Source: an uncultured bacterium
GTDB taxonomy: Bacteria > Cyanobacteriota > Vampirovibrionia > Gastranaerophilales > Gastranaerophilaceae
Length of the DNA stretch: 13,641 nt
NCBI GenBank assembly: GCA_948742005.1
Contig: CAPYQR010000021.1
Coordinates: 1-13,641 of the forward strand
Reading direction: 5' to 3'
Part shown: positions 1,226-8,312 of the stretch, piece after piece
Layout of the letters: each line of letters opens with the position of its first letter
How positions within the stretch are numbered: the stretch's first letter is position 1
Program-made: the position numbers and the translations under genes
The notes under the pieces: generated by a model
What the model saw: the letters and a program-made list of their open reading frames with translations, nothing else
The model's database searches: none
Told to the model about the DNA's origin: nothing

Positions 1226-1340
1226 ATATCAGGTTAGAATTTTTATGTTAAAATAAATAAAAACAGGAAATTAAGGTGAAATTCCTTAAGCCGGGCCGCG
1301 GCCGTATAGCCGGAAGACTGAAATAAGAGCGTTATTTTGC
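1226..1340 (+). ncRNA. Candidate cobalamin riboswitch (short, class II-like)
   Basis: This is a GC-rich island in an AT-rich spacer with the layout of a cobalamin aptamer. An AGGTT element at 1231 is followed by AAAACAGGAA, then the hairpin TTAAGG / CCTTAA (1271-1276 with 1284-1289) enclosing TGAAATT, which matches the conserved GGTGAAATTCC core. Next comes CCGGGCCGCGGCCGTA, resembling the CCCGC...CTGTA segment, with a short hairpin CGGC / GCCG (1299-1302 with 1309-1312). AGCCGGAAGACTG (1308-1320) resembles the B12 box, e.g. the AGCCCGAAGACCTG form I recall from btuB leaders. ATATCAG (1226-1232) can pair with CTGAAAT (1318-1324), six of seven, as a closing stem. The large peripheral arm of class I is absent, as in the short class II type. 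The match is by eye, without a covariance model. Confidence 0.62.
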
Positions 1341-1467
1341 GTGAATCCAAAAAACGTTTAATTTATTTATAAAATTGTTTTTTCAATTTTATTTGGTCTT
1401 TGTGCGGTTTTTATTTAAACGGTTTAAAATTTTACTTTAATTGAAAAATTATCAAAAAAGGAAAAAT
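1321..1467 (+). promoter_or_regulatory. Possible expression platform of the riboswitch
   Basis: This is the leader between the structured core and the start codon at 1468. AAATAA / TTATTT (1321-1326 with 1332-1337) can form a hairpin that competes with the closing stem of the aptamer. A nine-pair hairpin made almost only of A-U pairs lies at 1369-1377 with 1384-1392. CGTTTAA (1354-1360) is complementary to TTAAACG further down (about 1415-1421), bracketing that hairpin. No GC-rich stem followed by a U-run is seen, so control through translation or an alternative fold is more likely than a classic terminator. The folding itself is inference. Confidence 0.35.
1456..1462 (+). promoter_or_regulatory. 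Ribosome binding site selecting a TTG start at 1468
   Basis: AAAAGGA lies five bases upstream of TTG at 1468. The longer alternative, TTG at 1441, sits directly after an in-frame TAA (1438-1440) and has no Shine-Dalgarno-like sequence. ATG at 1558 would remove the CPHG...CPIC motif. The TTG at 1468 is therefore preferred. Confidence 0.6.
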
Positions 1468-2076
1468 TTGAAACCTTTAGTTCAACAATCTCAAATAAAT
1501 AAATGTCCGCATGGTTTTGTTGTCGGAACTTGCCCTATTTGTTCGGGAAAAGGAAGCATGGCAAGTTCTGACAGAAATAAACCCCGAAAAAAAGGCGAGA
1601 TGAGCTATAATGAATGTTTGGCGCAATGGAACAGAATAAAAGCATTAAAACAAAGCAGATTAAACGAGCAAAAACAATTAAATTTTCAAAAATTCAATCA
1701 GGATTTTAAAAAAAATACTTTTTTAAAAAATATTCTGCAAAATGTTACAAAACTGATGGATTTTAAAGGATTTAAAAACAGTTTAATTTCAAAAAGTTTT
1801 AATTTTGTTTTAAATAATTCGGCAAATATTTTCAAAGGTGTTTTTAACAAATTTTCTCAAATGTTCAAATCGTTGAATTTATTTCAAAATTCAATACAAA
1901 ATTTTTTCGCTTCCGCTTTTCAAAAAAGCTCTCAATTTTTAAATTCGATAATTGAAAAATTAAGCTCTTTTTTAGGGCAGGAGAAAAATTTTAAAGATGA
2001 AAAACAGGAAAAAACGCGCAAAAGACAAACAGGAATGATTAAATCAAGGAAGATAAAAGATGATTTTGGCAAATAA
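1468..2076 (+). CDS. Unrecognised protein with an N-terminal CxHx6CxxC motif and a Phe-rich body
   Basis: From the TTG at 1468 the protein is 202 residues. Near the N-terminus is CPHGFVVGTCPIC, with Cys13, His15, Cys22 and Cys25, a spacing that could bind zinc. A basic segment follows (RNKPRKKGEMSYNECLAQWNR). Residues of about 70-180 are extraordinarily rich in Phe, Asn, Lys, Gln and Ser, with Phe every three to four residues, consistent with long amphipathic helices that could lie on a membrane. The C-terminus is basic. The last 17 bases overlap the next gene, which encodes a membrane protein, so the two are probably translated together and may form a complex. Both lie downstream of the cobalamin-riboswitch-like RNA. 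I do not recognise a family and assign no function. Translation could also begin at TTG 1441, adding nine residues. Confidence 0.72.
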   Translation: MKPLVQQSQINKCPHGFVVGTCPICSGKGSMASSDRNKPRKKGEMSYNECLAQWNRIKALKQSRLNEQKQLNFQKFNQDFKKNTFLKNILQNVTKLMDFKGFKNSLISKSFNFVLNNSANIFKGVFNKFSQMFKSLNLFQNSIQNFFASAFQKSSQFLNSIIEKLSSFLGQEKNFKDEKQEKTRKRQTGMIKSRKIKDDFGK

Positions 2077-3523
2077 AAAAATTGAATCGGAAAGTTTAAA
2101 AGGATTTTTGCTTCAAAATAAGATTAAAAAAGATAAAACAGACGAAATTTTAAAAAGTATTGATGAATTTTCGTCAAATTTGATGGTTTTGGAAAACGAT
2201 TTTCTGGATAAAAAAGGCAATAATCCCGATTTTGAAAAATCTGATTTAAGGGAAGATTTTGATTCTAAAAAAATTTTAAAACCTATAGCCGTTCTCAGCC
2301 TTGCTTTGATTTTAGGAAGTGCAGCATTGAGTTTTTTAATCAAGGGTTATTCAAAAAATTTGTTAAAAAAAACAGATTTAATCCAGCCCGAGGATTTGGC
2401 GCGGAATATGAATATTGTTGAAGAGCCTGAGTTTGCTATGTTTCGGCTGTTAAGAGAACCTATGGGAAAAAATATTTTAGGTTTTTTGAGTGTTTGTTTG
2501 ATGTCAGGCATTGGTTTGGGTGCGAAAAATTTTGTAGACGGCTATAAGGAAGTTTGGATTAACAAGCAAAACTGTGAAATTAATCATAATCTTCAAAAAA
2601 ATTTGATAGATATTGAAGTCCATGCTTTTTCAGGAAAACTTGATGTTGTAAATGATTTATTGAAAAATACGACAAAATATTTTAAAGATACTTTTTCTAA
2701 AACTTCCTTTACAGGTTCAAATTTTAAAGATGATAAACATATCAACAAAAAAGAGAAAGATGAAGAAAAATTTATTGATAAAATAAAGAAAAAACTTCCC
2801 CTTGCTGTTTTTGCGTTTTTGACGACTATATTTTTAAGTTTTTTAATGTTTAAAAATCTTCAAAAGGCAGCAGGAAATTTTGATTTTTATCAAAAAAAAC
2901 TTGAAAAAAAATTGCTTGATTTTGATAAGCAGGAAATTTTTGAACTTCCTGACAAACAAAAAGCAATTAAAAGATTAAAAGAGGTTTTAATCGCCACAAA
3001 AGCATCGGATGTGGTAATTAAAGACGATGTTCAAAAAATTAAAGGAATAACACAAGACGAAATTAAAGAATTTATTGATGAAATGAACGGGTTGAATATT
3101 TATACTAATGCCGATAAGGCAATTTATGGAACATCGGGCAAAATCCAGTACTATTGCTATATAAACGATAATCGGGGACATTTATATAATTGGATTCTCA
3201 ATCCTGATAATAAATTTAATAAATACCTTTTTCTTGCTTTCACAATGATGAGTTCTGTTTCTTATGTTGTAAAAAGCGCTGTGGATGCTGTTAAAAAAAC
3301 AACAGTTGCAAGAGAAAATTCAAAAGCGGAATTAAATTTGAAAAAGAAGCTTTCTGATGTTGAAATTGCAAATTTTAAAGCTAAAAAATTAAGTGCAATT
3401 AATCCTTTGATTGCAGATTTTAAATTAAAGCTTGAAAAAGGAGCTTCAAAAGAAGAGCTTTTAATTTTGGCGCAGAATATTCTCCTTGAAATCAAAAACG
3501 GTCCGCCTTATGTTTATGCTTAA
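2060..3523 (+). CDS. Unrecognised four-helix membrane protein
   Basis: This is a 487-residue protein whose start is supported by AAGGAAG (about 2046-2052), seven bases before the ATG. Four hydrophobic segments stand out: about residues 73-94 (ending in LILGSAALSFLI), 137-155 (containing CLMSGIGLGA), 246-264 (PLAVFAFLTTIFLSFLMF) and 389-404. They are separated by long lysine-rich soluble regions: an N-terminal helical domain, a loop at about 156-245, a larger one at about 265-388, and a C-terminal helical tail ending in NGPPYVYA. No transporter, enzyme or ATP-binding motif is visible. It overlaps the CxH...CxxC protein by 17 bases, indicating one operon. The riboswitch-like leader hints at a cofactor-linked role, perhaps in uptake or in the envelope, but this is inference. 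It converges on the GIY-YIG gene with a two-base gap and no visible terminator. Confidence 0.75.
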   Translation: MILANKKIESESLKGFLLQNKIKKDKTDEILKSIDEFSSNLMVLENDFLDKKGNNPDFEKSDLREDFDSKKILKPIAVLSLALILGSAALSFLIKGYSKNLLKKTDLIQPEDLARNMNIVEEPEFAMFRLLREPMGKNILGFLSVCLMSGIGLGAKNFVDGYKEVWINKQNCEINHNLQKNLIDIEVHAFSGKLDVVNDLLKNTTKYFKDTFSKTSFTGSNFKDDKHINKKEKDEEKFIDKIKKKLPLAVFAFLTTIFLSFLMFKNLQKAAGNFDFYQKKLEKKLLDFDKQEIFELPDKQKAIKRLKEVLIATKASDVVIKDDVQKIKGITQDEIKEFIDEMNGLNIYTNADKAIYGTSGKIQYYCYINDNRGHLYNWILNPDNKFNKYLFLAFTMMSSVSYVVKSAVDAVKKTTVARENSKAELNLKKKLSDVEIANFKAKKLSAINPLIADFKLKLEKGASKEELLILAQNILLEIKNGPPYVYA

Positions 3524-3525
3524 AG

Positions 3526-3813
3526 CTAAAATCCTGCTTCAAGGAGAAGTTTTTGTGTTTTTTCTTTATTTTTTTCAATAAGTTCCAGTTTTTCTTTTCT
3601 TGAAAGGGTTTTTTTAATTTTATATTCAGCGCTTGATGCTTGTGATTTATCTTCAAAAATATCTAAATATACAATTTTATCAGGCGGGTGTGAAATTGTA
3701 TATTTTGCGCCTTTTTTCTCTTTGTGCTGGTTGAATCTTTTTTTAATATCAAGCGCAATTCCTGTGTAGAGCGTATTATCAAGAGTTTTTAGAATGTAGA
3801 GATAATATTTCAT
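3526..3813 (-). CDS. GIY-YIG (URI-type) endonuclease domain protein
   Basis: This 95-residue protein is about the size of stand-alone YhbQ/UPF0213-like members. The GIY-YIG fold signature is visible: YYLYILKT at the start, then LYTGIA, with the catalytic-type residues Tyr6, Tyr16, Arg26 (KKRFNQH) and metal-binding Glu63 (SSAEYKIKK) all kept. GAKYT (residues 35-39) is typical of this subgroup. Members cut DNA or RNA with a metal ion, but the substrate of the stand-alone bacterial forms is poorly defined. AAAGG lies six bases before the ATG on the minus strand. The start lies within the 3' end of the dihydrouridine synthase gene (35-base overlap), so the two are co-transcribed and probably translationally coupled. 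Confidence 0.88.
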   Translation of the reverse strand: MKYYLYILKTLDNTLYTGIALDIKKRFNQHKEKKGAKYTISHPPDKIVYLDIFEDKSQASSAEYKIKKTLSRKEKLELIEKNKEKTQKLLLEAGF

Positions 3814-4750
3814 CTAAAACCTTTAAAATTTCTTTCTGTGTTTCAATTGTAACCAAAACATTACGGTATTTTGAAGCGTTGCGTTCGCTTGAAATATAAT
3901 AACCGTAAAACTTGCGCATAAATTTTACCCCGTTTTTTTCTCCCATAAATTCAACTTCGCGCGCAAGGTGTTCTTTTAACATTTCGATTTTTTCTTCAAA
4001 GTTTGGCGGGGGGATTATTTTGCCTGTTGTTAAAAATTCTTCAATTCGATAAGGAAGAGTAAAATCGCCCATTATTCCTCTGCCTGTTGAAACCCCGTCA
4101 CAGGAGGAGATTTCAAGGCATTTTCGGACATCTTCAAGCGTTTTTATATCTCCGTTTGCAAAAACAGGAATTTTCAATTCTTTTTTTAAAAGTCCGATTT
4201 TTTCCCAATCAGCACTTCCTTGATATAATTGCGCGCGGGTTCTTGAGTGCAGCGTTACAAAATCAGCGCCTGCTGATTCTACAACTTTACCAAATTCTAT
4301 GAAATTTTCTTCATTATTTGTCCAGCCAAGGCGGAATTTAACGCTTATGGGTAAATCAACCGCTTGTTTTATTGATTGGATGATTTCAAAAATAAGCTCC
4401 GGGGTTTTCATCATTGCGCTGCCGTCACCTGATACGGTAACTTTTTTAACGGGACAGCCGCAGTTGATATCAATCATACTGGCGTATGGTGCAACGATTT
4501 TTGCAGCTTTTGTCATTTTATCAATTTTATGTCCGACAAGCTGAAAAGCGAGAGGGTATTCAAAATTTTCAAATTGAATAATTTTAGGATTCGGGTTATT
4601 GCAAAGCATCTCGGATGAAATCATTTCTGTTACCATGAGGCATTTTGAATGATATTTTCTTATAAGTCCGCGAAAAACCTTGTCGCTGACGCCTGCCAGT
4701 GGTGCTTGGATTACTTTTATTTTTTTAATATCGGTAATTTTTTTGTTCAT
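3779..4750 (-). CDS. dus: tRNA-dihydrouridine synthase, DusB/NifR3 type
   Basis: This 323-residue protein is of usual family length. It reduces uridine to dihydrouridine in the D-loop region of tRNA using FMN and NAD(P)H. The TIM-barrel motifs appear in order: APLAGVSDKVFRGLIRK (16-32), TEM (41-43), QLVGHK (70-75), the active-site DINCGCPVKKV with catalytic Cys99, VKFRLGW, then HSRTRAQLYQGSADW and the phosphate-binding VFANGDI and STGRGIMG. The HSRTRAQ form is nearest to DusB. The active site has CGC, so Cys97 is an extra cysteine beside Cys99. No Shine-Dalgarno sequence precedes the ATG; TATAAT lies seven bases upstream, suggesting a leaderless transcript. The downstream GIY-YIG gene overlaps its end. 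The exact Dus subtype is less certain than the family. Confidence 0.93.
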   Translation of the reverse strand: MNKKITDIKKIKVIQAPLAGVSDKVFRGLIRKYHSKCLMVTEMISSEMLCNNPNPKIIQFENFEYPLAFQLVGHKIDKMTKAAKIVAPYASMIDINCGCPVKKVTVSGDGSAMMKTPELIFEIIQSIKQAVDLPISVKFRLGWTNNEENFIEFGKVVESAGADFVTLHSRTRAQLYQGSADWEKIGLLKKELKIPVFANGDIKTLEDVRKCLEISSCDGVSTGRGIMGDFTLPYRIEEFLTTGKIIPPPNFEEKIEMLKEHLAREVEFMGEKNGVKFMRKFYGYYISSERNASKYRNVLVTIETQKEILKVLDEILSLHSKNS

Positions 4751-4828: not shown

Positions 4829-5179
4829 TTAAAACGGTTTTGTCTGGGATAATCTGTTTCTTAATTCTCTGAATTTAATAATGTCTTCCTGTGCTTTTGA
4901 GCTTTCTTTAAATAAAGCTTGCGATGCCGGGTGCATGATTATTATTGAATCAATATGAATTTCTAAAAAGTCATATCTTCTTGGAGCAGAATTTGAACCC
5001 TGGACGACTAATTCCGCGTTTGTGACTGCTAAAAATCTTCTTTCTTTATCATTTAAAAGTTCTGTTAATTCACGGTTGGATTTTGTGAATTTTGAAACAT
5101 AAACCGTTCCTTTAATTTCGTGGTCTTTTGTAATTATACAAACCTCAACAGGCGTGGTATCTGATGGTTGTTTGCTCAT
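4829..5179 (-). CDS. Small conserved-type protein, possibly the DUF6812 family
   Basis: This is a 116-residue soluble protein with no signal peptide. The core runs as beta strands: VEVCIITKDHEIKGTVYVS, then a helix RELTELLNDKERRFLAVTNAELVV, then YDFLEIHIDSIIIMHPAS. A charged helical tail follows (residues of about 88-116). The 'strand, GTVYV, LTELLN, RRFLAVTNA' pattern resembles DUF6812-type small proteins from memory, which is unconfirmed; the role of that family is unknown. GGAGT lies 11 bases before the ATG on the minus strand. It has its own strong promoter (TTGCCA, 17 bases, TATAAT) and its own terminator, so it is a single-gene transcription unit, which suggests steady expression. Confidence 0.8.
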   Translation of the reverse strand: MSKQPSDTTPVEVCIITKDHEIKGTVYVSKFTKSNRELTELLNDKERRFLAVTNAELVVQGSNSAPRRYDFLEIHIDSIIIMHPASQALFKESSKAQEDIIKFRELRNRLSQTKPF

Positions 5180-6663: not shown

Positions 6664-8010
6664 ATGGAAATTGTTTATAATTCTGATGTTATTGTAATAG
6701 GTGCAGGTCCTGCGGGAATTGCTGCGGCAATCAGTGTTGCGCGCGGCGGGAGGAAAGTTGTTTTGATTGATAAAAATCAATACGCAGGCTGTAAAAACAT
6801 GTATGGCGGGGCGGTTTTCGATTGTGCATTAAGGGAAATTGCAGGAGATGAAATAGACAATCTTCCTTATGAAAGAATAATAAATTCCCACACCTGGGCA
6901 TTTTTGACTCCTGAAACATCTTTTGAATTGACTTATAAAAATAAATCCGCACAAAATTCCTATGCCGTTAAAAGATTTAATCTTGAAAAATGGCTTGTGG
7001 AATTAGCCAAAAAAGAGGGTGTTTATTATGCTCCAAATACTCTTGTAAAAGATTTAGCCGAAAAGGACGGCAGGATAATCGGAATTAAAACCGAACTTGA
7101 AGAATTTTATGCTCCGATTATAATAATCGCCGAGGGTGTTAATTCGCTTTTGACTAAAAAACTGGGTTTAAGAAAAGATTTTAAACCTAAAGATATGCTT
7201 TTAACAATAAAAGAAACAATTAAACTTGATAAAAAAACAATAGAATCAAGATTTAATCTGCAACCGTCAACATCAGGCGCTGCTAAGATGTATTTCGGCG
7301 GGGTCAGAGATTATAAAGATTTGTTTATGATGACTTTTTTATACACATTTAAAGATACGGTTATGCTCGGTTTGGGCGTAAATATGGTTGATTTGGATAA
7401 AAACAAGATAAATATTAACACTCTTTTAGATGAAATAAAACAACATCCTGATATTTCGCCTTTAATTGAGGATGGCAAAACAATTGAATACAGCGCGCAT
7501 TTGATTCCTGAAACAGGATATAAAAAAATGCCTGAAGCTGCTAAAGCGAATGTAATGCTTGCGGGAGATTGCGCAGGGTTTATTAATAATGTTCATTTTG
7601 AGGGAACAAATTTTGCTCTGATAAGCGGAAAACTTGCAGGGCAAACAGCACTTGAAGCGCTTGATAAAGCGGGATTTAACAGTATGAACGGGTGTGCTGA
7701 TGAAGCAAAAATTGATAAAGAAATTAAAAATTATAAGAAAAAATTAAAAAAATCATTTATTTTAAAAGACCTTTATTCTTATAGAAACGTTATAGAGAAA
7801 CTTTATTCAAGACGTGAGTCGCTTTCTTATTATTATCCTGAAAGAATTAAGGAATTTTTTGAAATTGTAACAAGTGCAAATTGTGTTTCAAAAAGTTCGC
7901 AATTTAGAAAATTTGCATTTAATTTTATTGAAAAAAGAGCAATAAAAGAGCTGTTTAAAGATATTTTTGCTTTTTCAAAGTGTGCGTTTGATGTATTTTT
8001 TGGGAAATAA
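6664..8010 (+). CDS. fixC: FixC-like electron-transfer flavoprotein:quinone oxidoreductase
   Basis: This is a 448-residue protein; E. coli FixC is of similar size. It binds FAD and would pass electrons from an electron-transfer flavoprotein (FixAB/ETF) towards quinone at the membrane face. The N-terminal Rossmann motif is clear: DVIVIGAGPAGIAAAIS with GxGxxG at residues 13-18 and the acidic residue Asp36 (LIDK). KNMYGGAVFD (about 44-56) corresponds to the 'GGxx' segment of ETF-quinone oxidoreductases. The second FAD motif is NVMLAGDCAGFINN with Asp302, followed by HFEGTNFALISGKLAGQTA. The long C-terminal helical region lacks cysteines for an iron-sulphur cluster, which is supplied by the adjacent FixX two bases downstream. 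No fixA or fixB is seen nearby. No ribosome binding site precedes the start. Confidence 0.88.
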   Translation: MEIVYNSDVIVIGAGPAGIAAAISVARGGRKVVLIDKNQYAGCKNMYGGAVFDCALREIAGDEIDNLPYERIINSHTWAFLTPETSFELTYKNKSAQNSYAVKRFNLEKWLVELAKKEGVYYAPNTLVKDLAEKDGRIIGIKTELEEFYAPIIIIAEGVNSLLTKKLGLRKDFKPKDMLLTIKETIKLDKKTIESRFNLQPSTSGAAKMYFGGVRDYKDLFMMTFLYTFKDTVMLGLGVNMVDLDKNKININTLLDEIKQHPDISPLIEDGKTIEYSAHLIPETGYKKMPEAAKANVMLAGDCAGFINNVHFEGTNFALISGKLAGQTALEALDKAGFNSMNGCADEAKIDKEIKNYKKKLKKSFILKDLYSYRNVIEKLYSRRESLSYYYPERIKEFFEIVTSANCVSKSSQFRKFAFNFIEKRAIKELFKDIFAFSKCAFDVFFGK

Positions 8011-8012
8011 AA

Positions 8013-8312
8013 ATGGACAATAAAAAAGACAATAAAAAATCAATACAAGACAAATTAAGTACAATCAAGTATAATTGTTCTTGTGAATCACATTTAAAAG
8101 TTAATCAGGAAATTTGCGCAATATGTGATGAAAAAACCTGTACTTTTATTTGTCCGGCTGATGTATACAGCATTGACCCTGACACAGATGAAATAATAAT
8201 ACAATATGAAAACTGCCTTGAATGCGGCGCATGTAAAATTGCATGTAAATTAAAATCATTGGAATGGGAATATCCAAAACAAGGCTATGGCGTAATTTAT
8301 AAAAACAGTTAA
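8013..8312 (+). CDS. fixX: FixX-like ferredoxin, cysteine-rich
   Basis: This 99-residue protein is of usual FixX length. It is the iron-sulphur partner of FixC, the equivalent of the C-terminal cluster domain of ETF-quinone oxidoreductase. The family signature is present: ICPADVYSI (Cys47-Pro), YENCLECGACKIAC (Cys68, Cys71, Cys74, Cys78) and the closing LEWEYPKQGYGVIYK, which aligns with the E. coli FixX ending. Cys47, 68, 71 and 74 can hold one [4Fe-4S] cluster. Unusually, Cys35, Cys38 and Cys43 precede Cys47 and Cys78 follows, giving a CxxCx4CxxxCP plus CxxCxxCxxxC pattern that could hold a second cluster. Cys22 and Cys24 are additional. It starts two bases after fixC, with only a weak GGGAAA, so translation is probably coupled. 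Confidence 0.88.
   Translation: MDNKKDNKKSIQDKLSTIKYNCSCESHLKVNQEICAICDEKTCTFICPADVYSIDPDTDEIIIQYENCLECGACKIACKLKSLEWEYPKQGYGVIYKNS

What the first reader, a model, noticed from the sequence alone, without database searches (positions are those of the whole stretch)
1226..1467. Cobalamin-riboswitch-like RNA upstream of genes with no known B12 link
The GC-rich element carries the GGTGAAATTCC core, a CCGC...CCGTA segment and an AGCCGGAAGACTG B12-box-like motif, with a short arm as in class II cobalamin riboswitches. The downstream pair (a CxH...CxxC protein and a four-helix membrane protein) is not a recognised B12 gene set. If the element is real, these may be an undescribed B12-regulated system, possibly in cobalamin handling.
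Basis: partly seen in the sequence, partly recalled or inferred. Interest (0 to 1): 0.7.

Follow-up and report, generated by a model that had tools for sequence, protein, structure and literature searches.

The report
B12 riboswitch before unknown membrane pair
A gut cyanobacteria-relative carries an RNA switch of the vitamin B12-sensing type in front of two unknown genes, and most of its relatives keep the same arrangement, which points to an undescribed part of how these bacteria deal with vitamin B12.

Summary
Window 1249-1328 matches Rfam AdoCbl-II (RF01689) with E 2e-4, but at 28.4 bits it lies below the 36.5-bit gathering score. Relatives settle it: in the order of G004 (a Gastranaerophilales genome) 267 of 286 genomes match and 209 exceed the cut-off. 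A model built here finds the element before 71 of 80 fetched orthologues. P4 and P5 covary, and a downstream hairpin offers an L5-L13-type kissing motif. In divergent relatives the operon follows RF00174 matches over the cut-off.

Other copies precede btuBCDF-like uptake operons and class III ribonucleotide reductase, a classical cobalamin regulon; the ligand is likely but untested. The downstream pair (ORF1: CPHG-CPIC protein; ORF2: internally duplicated membrane protein) has no convincing relative in Pfam, NCBIfam or PDB.

My best guess is corrinoid acquisition or handling: 13 of 26 ORF2 genomes in a chosen sample have CobA/BtuR but no BtuC-type permease. Against it, six riboswitch-bearing relatives, including the one nearest the window, lack CobA/BtuR, BtuC, QueG and any full-scoring NrdJ. 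Function remains open.

The parts
1249..1328 (+). Cobalamin-riboswitch aptamer, short (class II / AdoCbl-II) form. P4 1272-1276 with 1284-1288; P5 1292-1293 with 1299-1300 (L5 1294-1298); P6 1302-1304 with 1311-1313; closing stem only 3 pairs here (1264-1266 with 1318-1320)
   Evidence: RF01689 28.4 bits, E 2e-4, below gathering 36.5; model R1 75.5 bits, but R1's alignment includes the window; covariation in relatives
1328..1358 (+). Downstream hairpin (P13-like): stem 1328-1333 with 1353-1358, loop motif UGCG at 1338-1341 facing CGCG (1297-1300) of L5/P5
   Evidence: Sequence and alignment A7; kissing columns 50-53/109-112: 84.8% of cells paired, central pair GC in 53, AU in 2, GU in 1 of 56; the outermost pair fails in 18 of 56
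1359..1467 (+). Long spacer with a Shine-Dalgarno-like AAGGA at 1458-1462; expression platform not identified in the window itself
   Evidence: SD-sequestering helix not significant in the window (p 0.67) although p<=0.05 in 28 of 58 leaders
1468..2076 (+). ORF1: 202 aa from TTG, N-terminal CPHG-x5-CPIC motif, then helical; no strongly hydrophobic segment; no convincing known family
   Evidence: 45 proteins found, one its own entry; alignments; model pLDDT 75; no Pfam match over its cut-off for the window protein, scattered weak ones in homologues; NCBIfam matches only under cut-off; no PDB fold with E<=0.001; PDB by sequence: one marginal hit, E 0.0095, to a coiled-coil chain
2060..3523 (+). 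ORF2: 487 aa membrane protein, two strong and one weaker hydrophobic segment, long helices, internally duplicated; no convincing known family
   Evidence: 223 proteins found, one its own entry, with only part of the candidates scored; N-half vs C-half hhalign probability 97, E 1e-10; model pLDDT 78; Pfam 0 for the window protein, only scattered weak matches in 30 members; NCBIfam 0; no PDB match; in 245 of 272 genomes of the order

Best explanation
The RNA at 1249-1358 is a short-form (class II) cobalamin riboswitch that turns down translation of a two-gene operon when cobalamin is plentiful. The operon (a CPHG/CPIC protein plus an internally duplicated membrane protein) most likely makes a membrane complex for taking up or handling corrinoids in Gastranaerophilales. 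Steps and my confidence: (1) a real structured cis-regulatory RNA: shown by conservation and covariation, about 0.97; (2) cobalamin is the ligand: inferred from family and from the co-regulated btu and nrd operons, about 0.93; (3) it is an OFF switch acting on translation: inferred from the regulon and from SD-sequestering helices in about half of the tested leaders, about 0.75; (4) ORF1-ORF2 serve corrinoid acquisition or handling: inference, about 0.45.
For: RF01689 in 267 of 286 genomes, 209 over cut-off. 33 of 39 hit loci have ORF1+ORF2 right downstream; of 91 listed hits in genomes with a listed ORF2, 83 lie 664-948 bp upstream of it on the same strand. Element before 71 of 80 ORF2 loci. 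Cells paired, cells with two-sided change and covariation score exceed all 500 shuffles. 7 of the 8 fetched RF00174 loci precede ORF1. Other copies precede btu-like and NrdD operons. In five loci the pair stands head to head with a riboswitch match on the opposite strand, which in the one read out (L033) leads a btuBCDF-like operon. 13 of 26 ORF2+ genomes in a chosen sample of 46 have CobA/BtuR but no FecCD permease, so an unrecognised uptake route is needed. Of 18 genomes without an RF01689 match among 272, 14 lack ORF2, and only one of those 14 has NrdJ.
Against: The window element is below Rfam's gathering score and its closing stem is weak. Two of the five covariation measures (number of pairs with two-sided change, further pair types) do not exceed shuffles. 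Six ORF2+ riboswitch+ genomes (G001, G004, G007, G008, G022, G097) have no CobA/BtuR, BtuC or QueG and no NrdJ over the cut-off, and four of them no PF02310 protein, so corrinoid uptake would have no known client there. Seven ORF2- genomes with CobA/BtuR also lack FecCD, so ORF2 cannot be the whole answer to the transport gap. ORF2 and NrdJ associate only weakly (p 0.02, uncorrected for phylogeny). No significant fold match. G131, G218 and G234 keep ORF2 without NrdJ or CobA/BtuR.
Confidence: 0.5

Rival explanations
1. The pair is a B12-independent stand-in: it is switched on when cobalamin is scarce to do a job that a cobalamin-dependent protein does otherwise, as NrdD does for NrdJ.
For: NrdD operons in the same order carry the same riboswitch. 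The pair persists with its riboswitch in genomes without a full-scoring NrdJ.
Against: Genomes with no RF01689 match mostly lack the pair (14 of 18), and 13 of these 14 have no NrdJ; a substitute would be expected to stay. No enzymatic domain recognised.
Confidence: 0.22
2. Cobalamin is only a nutritional cue; ORF1-ORF2 do something unrelated in the envelope (scaffold, channel or surface function).
For: Long helical ORF2 without a significant fold match; riboswitch kept in genomes without the B12 enzymes tested.
Against: Cobalamin-riboswitch targets were sorted in print into B12 biosynthesis, B12 and precursor transport, cobalt transport, and isozymes (PMC3766115, passages); head-to-head placement with a second riboswitch match in five loci, one read out as a btu operon.
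Confidence: 0.23
3. In this clade the RNA has drifted to another ligand or to no ligand.
For: Window score 28.4 and G001 31.8 against 36.5; weak closing stem in the window; the nearest relative lacks both adenosyltransferase families tested.
Against: 22 invariant columns over 56 leaders; relatives without CobA/BtuR score high (G097 54.4, G007 47.3, G022 46.7, G008 45.0 bits). Short-form cobalamin riboswitches can prefer non-adenosyl forms (recalled).
Confidence: 0.06
4. Chance resemblance, or a ribosomal-protein leader (RF03142 scored 22.9 bits over the same bases).
For: Only below-threshold scores in the window; single-sequence folding is unremarkable.
Against: Conserved over the order in front of the same operon, with covariation; the downstream frames are not ribosomal proteins by Pfam.
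Confidence: 0.01

Closest known systems
Rfam RF01689 AdoCbl-II (AdoCbl-variant) riboswitch
   Same: Length, P4/P5/P6 architecture, conserved core, place in a 5' leader. 209 of 286 genomes have a match over the cut-off, and 83 of 91 checkable ones lie before this operon.
   Different: The window itself scores 28.4 against 36.5. The target genes are not a known B12 set. The family was listed as marine (PMC2864571, table passage seen); here many carriers have gut, caecum or rumen isolate names.
Rfam RF00174 cobalamin riboswitch
   Same: Same clan; matches over its cut-off stand before the same operon in divergent relatives (7 of 8 fetched loci).
   Different: In the window RF01689 is the better of the clan; only the best of a clan is shown.
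BtuBCDF cobalamin uptake operon
   Same: Same riboswitch class and order; divergent neighbour of the pair in L033.
   Different: ORF1/ORF2 match neither the FecCD, TonB receptor, ATPase nor periplasmic binding protein families.
Cobalamin-repressed isozymes (NrdDG)
   Same: Under the same riboswitch in the same order.
   Different: No catalytic domain recognised in ORF1/ORF2.

Membership tests
RF01689 AdoCbl-II riboswitch | Covariance-model score at or above Rfam's gathering score (36.5 bits) | tested here: not met
   Window 28.4 bits. Relatives: a match over the cut-off in 209 of 286 genomes. So the window element is called a divergent homologue and is not filed as an RF01689 member by score.
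Class II cobalamin riboswitch (works like) | Conserved core with P4, P5 and P6 | tested here: met
   P4 99%, P5 and P6 100% of cells paired, two-sided changes in P4 and P5
Class II cobalamin riboswitch (works like) | Closing stem P1/P3 | tested here: inconclusive
   3 pairs in the window; 68.9% of cells paired over 73 distinct rows, with two-sided changes at 4 of 5 pairs, on an alignment fitted to the structure
Class II cobalamin riboswitch (works like) | L5-L13 kissing interaction with a downstream hairpin | tested here: met
   CGCR facing YGCG; 84.8% of cells paired, two-sided change at the central pair in L030 and L042. The motif shares two bases with P5, so the exact register is uncertain; the controls cover P4 and P6 too.
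Class II cobalamin riboswitch (works like) | Binds a cobalamin and changes expression | not testable with these tools
   Needs in-line probing and a reporter
BtuC/FecCD permease (for ORF2) | PF01032 match | tested here: not met
   0 Pfam families for ORF2 of the window; PF01032 not among the 12 families matched by any of 30 members at E<=0.05
BtuM or ECF-type B12 transporters (for ORF2) | Sequence or fold match | tested here: inconclusive
   No Pfam or NCBIfam match of the window protein; no significant PDB match; these families were not searched one by one

The most novel reading that the evidence does not exclude
ORF1-ORF2 are a new kind of corrinoid import or capture machine of the gut cyanobacterial sister lineage, standing in for BtuCDF, and some of its owners use corrinoids through enzymes not yet known to be B12-dependent.
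Probability: 0.28. Interest if true: 0.85.

Novelty: new variant of a known kind. Interest (0 to 1): 0.66.

Why it matters
The RNA itself extends a known riboswitch class. The protein pair is the commonest cobalamin-riboswitch target among the hits whose context I read in an order of largely gut bacteria, and belongs to no family found here. It gives a concrete candidate for how auxotrophs without BtuCDF obtain B12, and it raises a sharp question about genomes that keep a cobalamin switch but none of the cobalamin enzymes tested.

Tried and rejected

Literature: riboswitch+cobalamin+Melainabacteria 1 paper, a cyanobacteria review (listing only); Gastranaerophilales+B12+riboswitch 0; Gastranaerophilales+cobalamin 12, of which PMC4040986 was read in passages; cobalamin riboswitch+transporter+unknown function+cyanobacteria 17, of which PMC3766115 was read in passages; AdoCbl-variant 5, of which PMC2864571 was read in passages; Melainabacteria+B12 35, of which PMC4914512 was read in passages and not used. 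Nothing on this operon seen in these. Subscription papers are mostly not held.

Limits: genome completeness is not stated, and titled carriers are mostly MAGs; the 46-genome sample was chosen by me for contrast, not at random; one search uses only the 150 best-listed hits on each side and drops 59 riboswitch hits in genomes whose ORF2 was not listed; one search used strict filters (G234, no match there, has a 49-bit match with R1); the association tests ignore phylogeny; NrdJ is counted with a match over the cut-off, or split in two halves (G025), and weaker matches in G008, G022 and G229 are not counted; seven of the 27 ORF2-negative genomes were not printed and were worked out from the rows; R1 was built from A3, which contains the window and elements of eight genomes that recur among the 80 loci; the 80 loci are the best of 89. 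In L057 the frame's first Met lies inside the aptamer match; the SD-based start lies after it.

Full report
What is in the window. The window comes from a member of the Gastranaerophilales or close kin. Of the four listed ORF2 homologues with a source name, two are called Gastranaerophilales and two just bacterium. The 80 ORF2 loci kept from species genomes are titled Gastranaerophilales (one Avigastranaerophilus), Melainabacteria, Cyanobacteria or unnamed bacteria.

The RNA. A gathering-level Rfam scan of the window finds nothing. With permissive thresholds the best match is AdoCbl-II, RF01689, at 1249-1328: 28.4 bits, E 2e-4, full length, under the 36.5-bit cut-off. The alignment marks non-standard pairs mainly in the closing stem. 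On its own the element does not fold better than shuffles. Relatives decide the matter. In the order of genome G004, 267 of 286 genomes have an RF01689 match at E<=0.1 and 209 exceed the cut-off. On a plain MAFFT alignment of 39 elements, three P4 pairs have two-sided changes in 16 to 19 sequences. On 56 leaders, three P4 pairs have them in 24, 18 and 13 sequences and one P5 pair in 22 (UA to CG). 95.5% of cells pair, against 22-60% when the partners are slid. Three of five measures (cells paired, cells with two-sided change, covariation score) are reached by 0 of 500 shuffles; the other two (number of such pairs, further pair types) are reached by most shuffles. A model-fitted alignment of 73 distinct rows agrees, including a covarying closing stem, but leans towards its structure by construction.

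The downstream hairpin. Just 3' of the aptamer most leaders show a hairpin of variable stem with a (U)UGCG-like loop motif. It can pair with the CGCR of L5/P5: in 56 leaders the central pair is GC in 53, AU in 2 (L030, L042) and GU in 1; the two neighbours fail in 7 and 9, the outermost in 18. This is the L5-L13 arrangement of cobalamin riboswitches (recalled). The motif overlaps two bases of P5, so the exact register is not fixed.

The expression platform. A start codon was assigned in the 65 leaders given, median 69 bases after the aptamer. A helix that buries the Shine-Dalgarno sequence, often CCUUAC with GUAAGG, beats shuffled upstream sequence at p<=0.05 in 28 of 58 leaders. I infer translational control. 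The window's own leader is longer (139 bases) and shows no such helix (p 0.67), so its platform is unknown.

The target. 33 of 39 fetched riboswitch loci have ORF1 and ORF2 homologues directly downstream. Of 91 listed riboswitch hits in genomes with a listed ORF2, 83 lie 664-948 bp upstream of ORF2 on the same strand; the other eight are five NrdD operons, two btu-like operons and one unclear set. From the protein side, 71 of 80 ORF2 loci have the element upstream. Of the other nine, four start at or near a contig end (L043, L048, L072, L079), four keep the pair without a recognisable element (L019, L020, L038, L049), and in L052 no ORF1 was found. In divergent relatives the long RF00174 model scores over its cut-off: in a 60-genome look 12 genomes do so, and 7 of the 8 loci fetched from it precede ORF1, with ORF2 seen in six. 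So cobalamin riboswitches that fit either Rfam model lead the same operon, which is independent support for the cobalamin link.

The regulon. I read the context of 31 further riboswitch hits, chosen as second copies or outliers and so not a fair sample: 12 precede NrdD (class III ribonucleotide reductase, mostly with NrdG), 6 precede a TonB receptor with a BtuC-like permease, 10 precede ORF1-ORF2, and 3 precede other genes (an OprB porin, a radical SAM protein, an unclear set). Pfam was run on representatives; NrdD positions and permease positions agree with most of the rest; the remainder were read by eye. All eight FecCD permeases found in the 46 genomes lie downstream of a cobalamin riboswitch hit. 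In five loci (L032, L033, L034, L044, L067) a second match lies on the opposite strand (28-35 bits); in L033, the one read out, it leads a TonB receptor, permease, ATPase and BtuF-like binding protein, head to head with the pair. The NCBIfam vitamin B12 models are among the better matches there but none reaches its cut-off. B12 transport genes and isozymes of B12-dependent enzymes are classical contents of cobalamin regulons (PMC3766115, passages seen).

The proteins. ORF1 has an N-terminal CPHG-x5-CPIC motif, a GEMSYNEC block and long helices; the motif looks metal-binding (inference). Its family average shows no strongly hydrophobic segment. ORF2 has two strong and one weaker hydrophobic segment over my threshold, long helices and an internal duplication that profile comparison detects (probability 97, E 1e-10). 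Among its best conserved stretches are EEPxFAxYRALRDPN and QYYCYINExRGHLYNWILNPENKFNKY, which align with each other in the two halves. The window proteins have no Pfam match over a cut-off, no NCBIfam match over a cut-off and no PDB fold match with E<=0.001.

Does the pair serve B12? For: in a chosen sample of 46 genomes, CobA/BtuR occurs in 28, including all 26 with NrdJ. Of the 26 genomes with ORF2, 17 have CobA/BtuR, and 13 of these have no FecCD permease, so they need another way to get corrinoids. In the 272 shared genomes, 14 of the 18 without an RF01689 match also lack ORF2, and only one of those 14 has NrdJ. Part of this is trivial, since losing the locus removes both. Against: ORF2 and NrdJ associate only weakly (159 of 245 against 11 of 27, p 0.02 without phylogenetic correction). 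Six riboswitch-bearing ORF2 genomes (G001, G004, G007, G008, G022, G097) lack CobA/BtuR, BtuC, QueG and any NrdJ match over the cut-off, and four of them also lack any PF02310 protein. G001, from the best-matching fetched locus (L001, 59% identity), is one. Seven ORF2-less genomes with CobA/BtuR lack FecCD too. So either unknown corrinoid enzymes exist there, or the pair does something else. Incomplete genomes may explain single absences but hardly all of them.

Judgement. The riboswitch is real and of a known class, with the window's copy a divergent one. The operon is an undescribed and widespread member of a cobalamin regulon. I favour corrinoid acquisition or handling at about 0.45, ahead of a B12-independent substitute (0.22) and of an unrelated envelope function (0.23). 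Ligand binding and protein function need the bench.

Noticed in passing
L032, L033, L034, L044, L067 (about 4853-4958, minus strand): A second, weaker cobalamin-riboswitch match divergent from the first; in L033 it heads a btuBCDF-like operon.
   Followed up: partly
L132, L133, L135-L139; L181, L182, L188, L189: RF00174 matches over the cut-off in front of the same ORF1-ORF2 operon in divergent relatives (7 of 8 fetched).
   Followed up: yes
L019, L020, L038, L049: The pair is kept without a recognisable riboswitch; L049 is the same contig size and isolate region as G131:C84, a genome without NrdJ and CobA/BtuR.
   Followed up: partly
L036 and L196 (G234): Aptamer match about 20 bases longer than the rest (49 bits), in a genome without NrdJ and CobA/BtuR; its ORF2 match holds one in-frame stop.
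   Followed up: no
L134 (G012:C76): Two divergent cobalamin-riboswitch hits; one side an OprB porin, the other a protein that reads like CobT by eye (not scanned).
   Followed up: no
L173 (G203:C7): A 44-bit RF01689 match before two proteins without Pfam family, then a PTPS-family protein.
   Followed up: partly
L033:7471-7965, L127:7309-7773, L128:2384-2866: A third gene of about 150-165 aa without Pfam family follows ORF2 in several distant relatives, but not in the window.
   Followed up: partly
L061, L069, L074 leaders: Unusually long leaders (184-260 bases); L069 and L074 seem to contain repeated segments, by eye.
   Followed up: no
window 6664-8312: FAD oxidoreductase and ferredoxin-like pair resembling ETF-quinone oxidoreductase (FixC/FixX-like).
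   Followed up: no
window 3526-3813 and 3779-4750: GIY-YIG nuclease-like gene overlapping a Dus-family tRNA dihydrouridine synthase gene on the minus strand.
   Followed up: no
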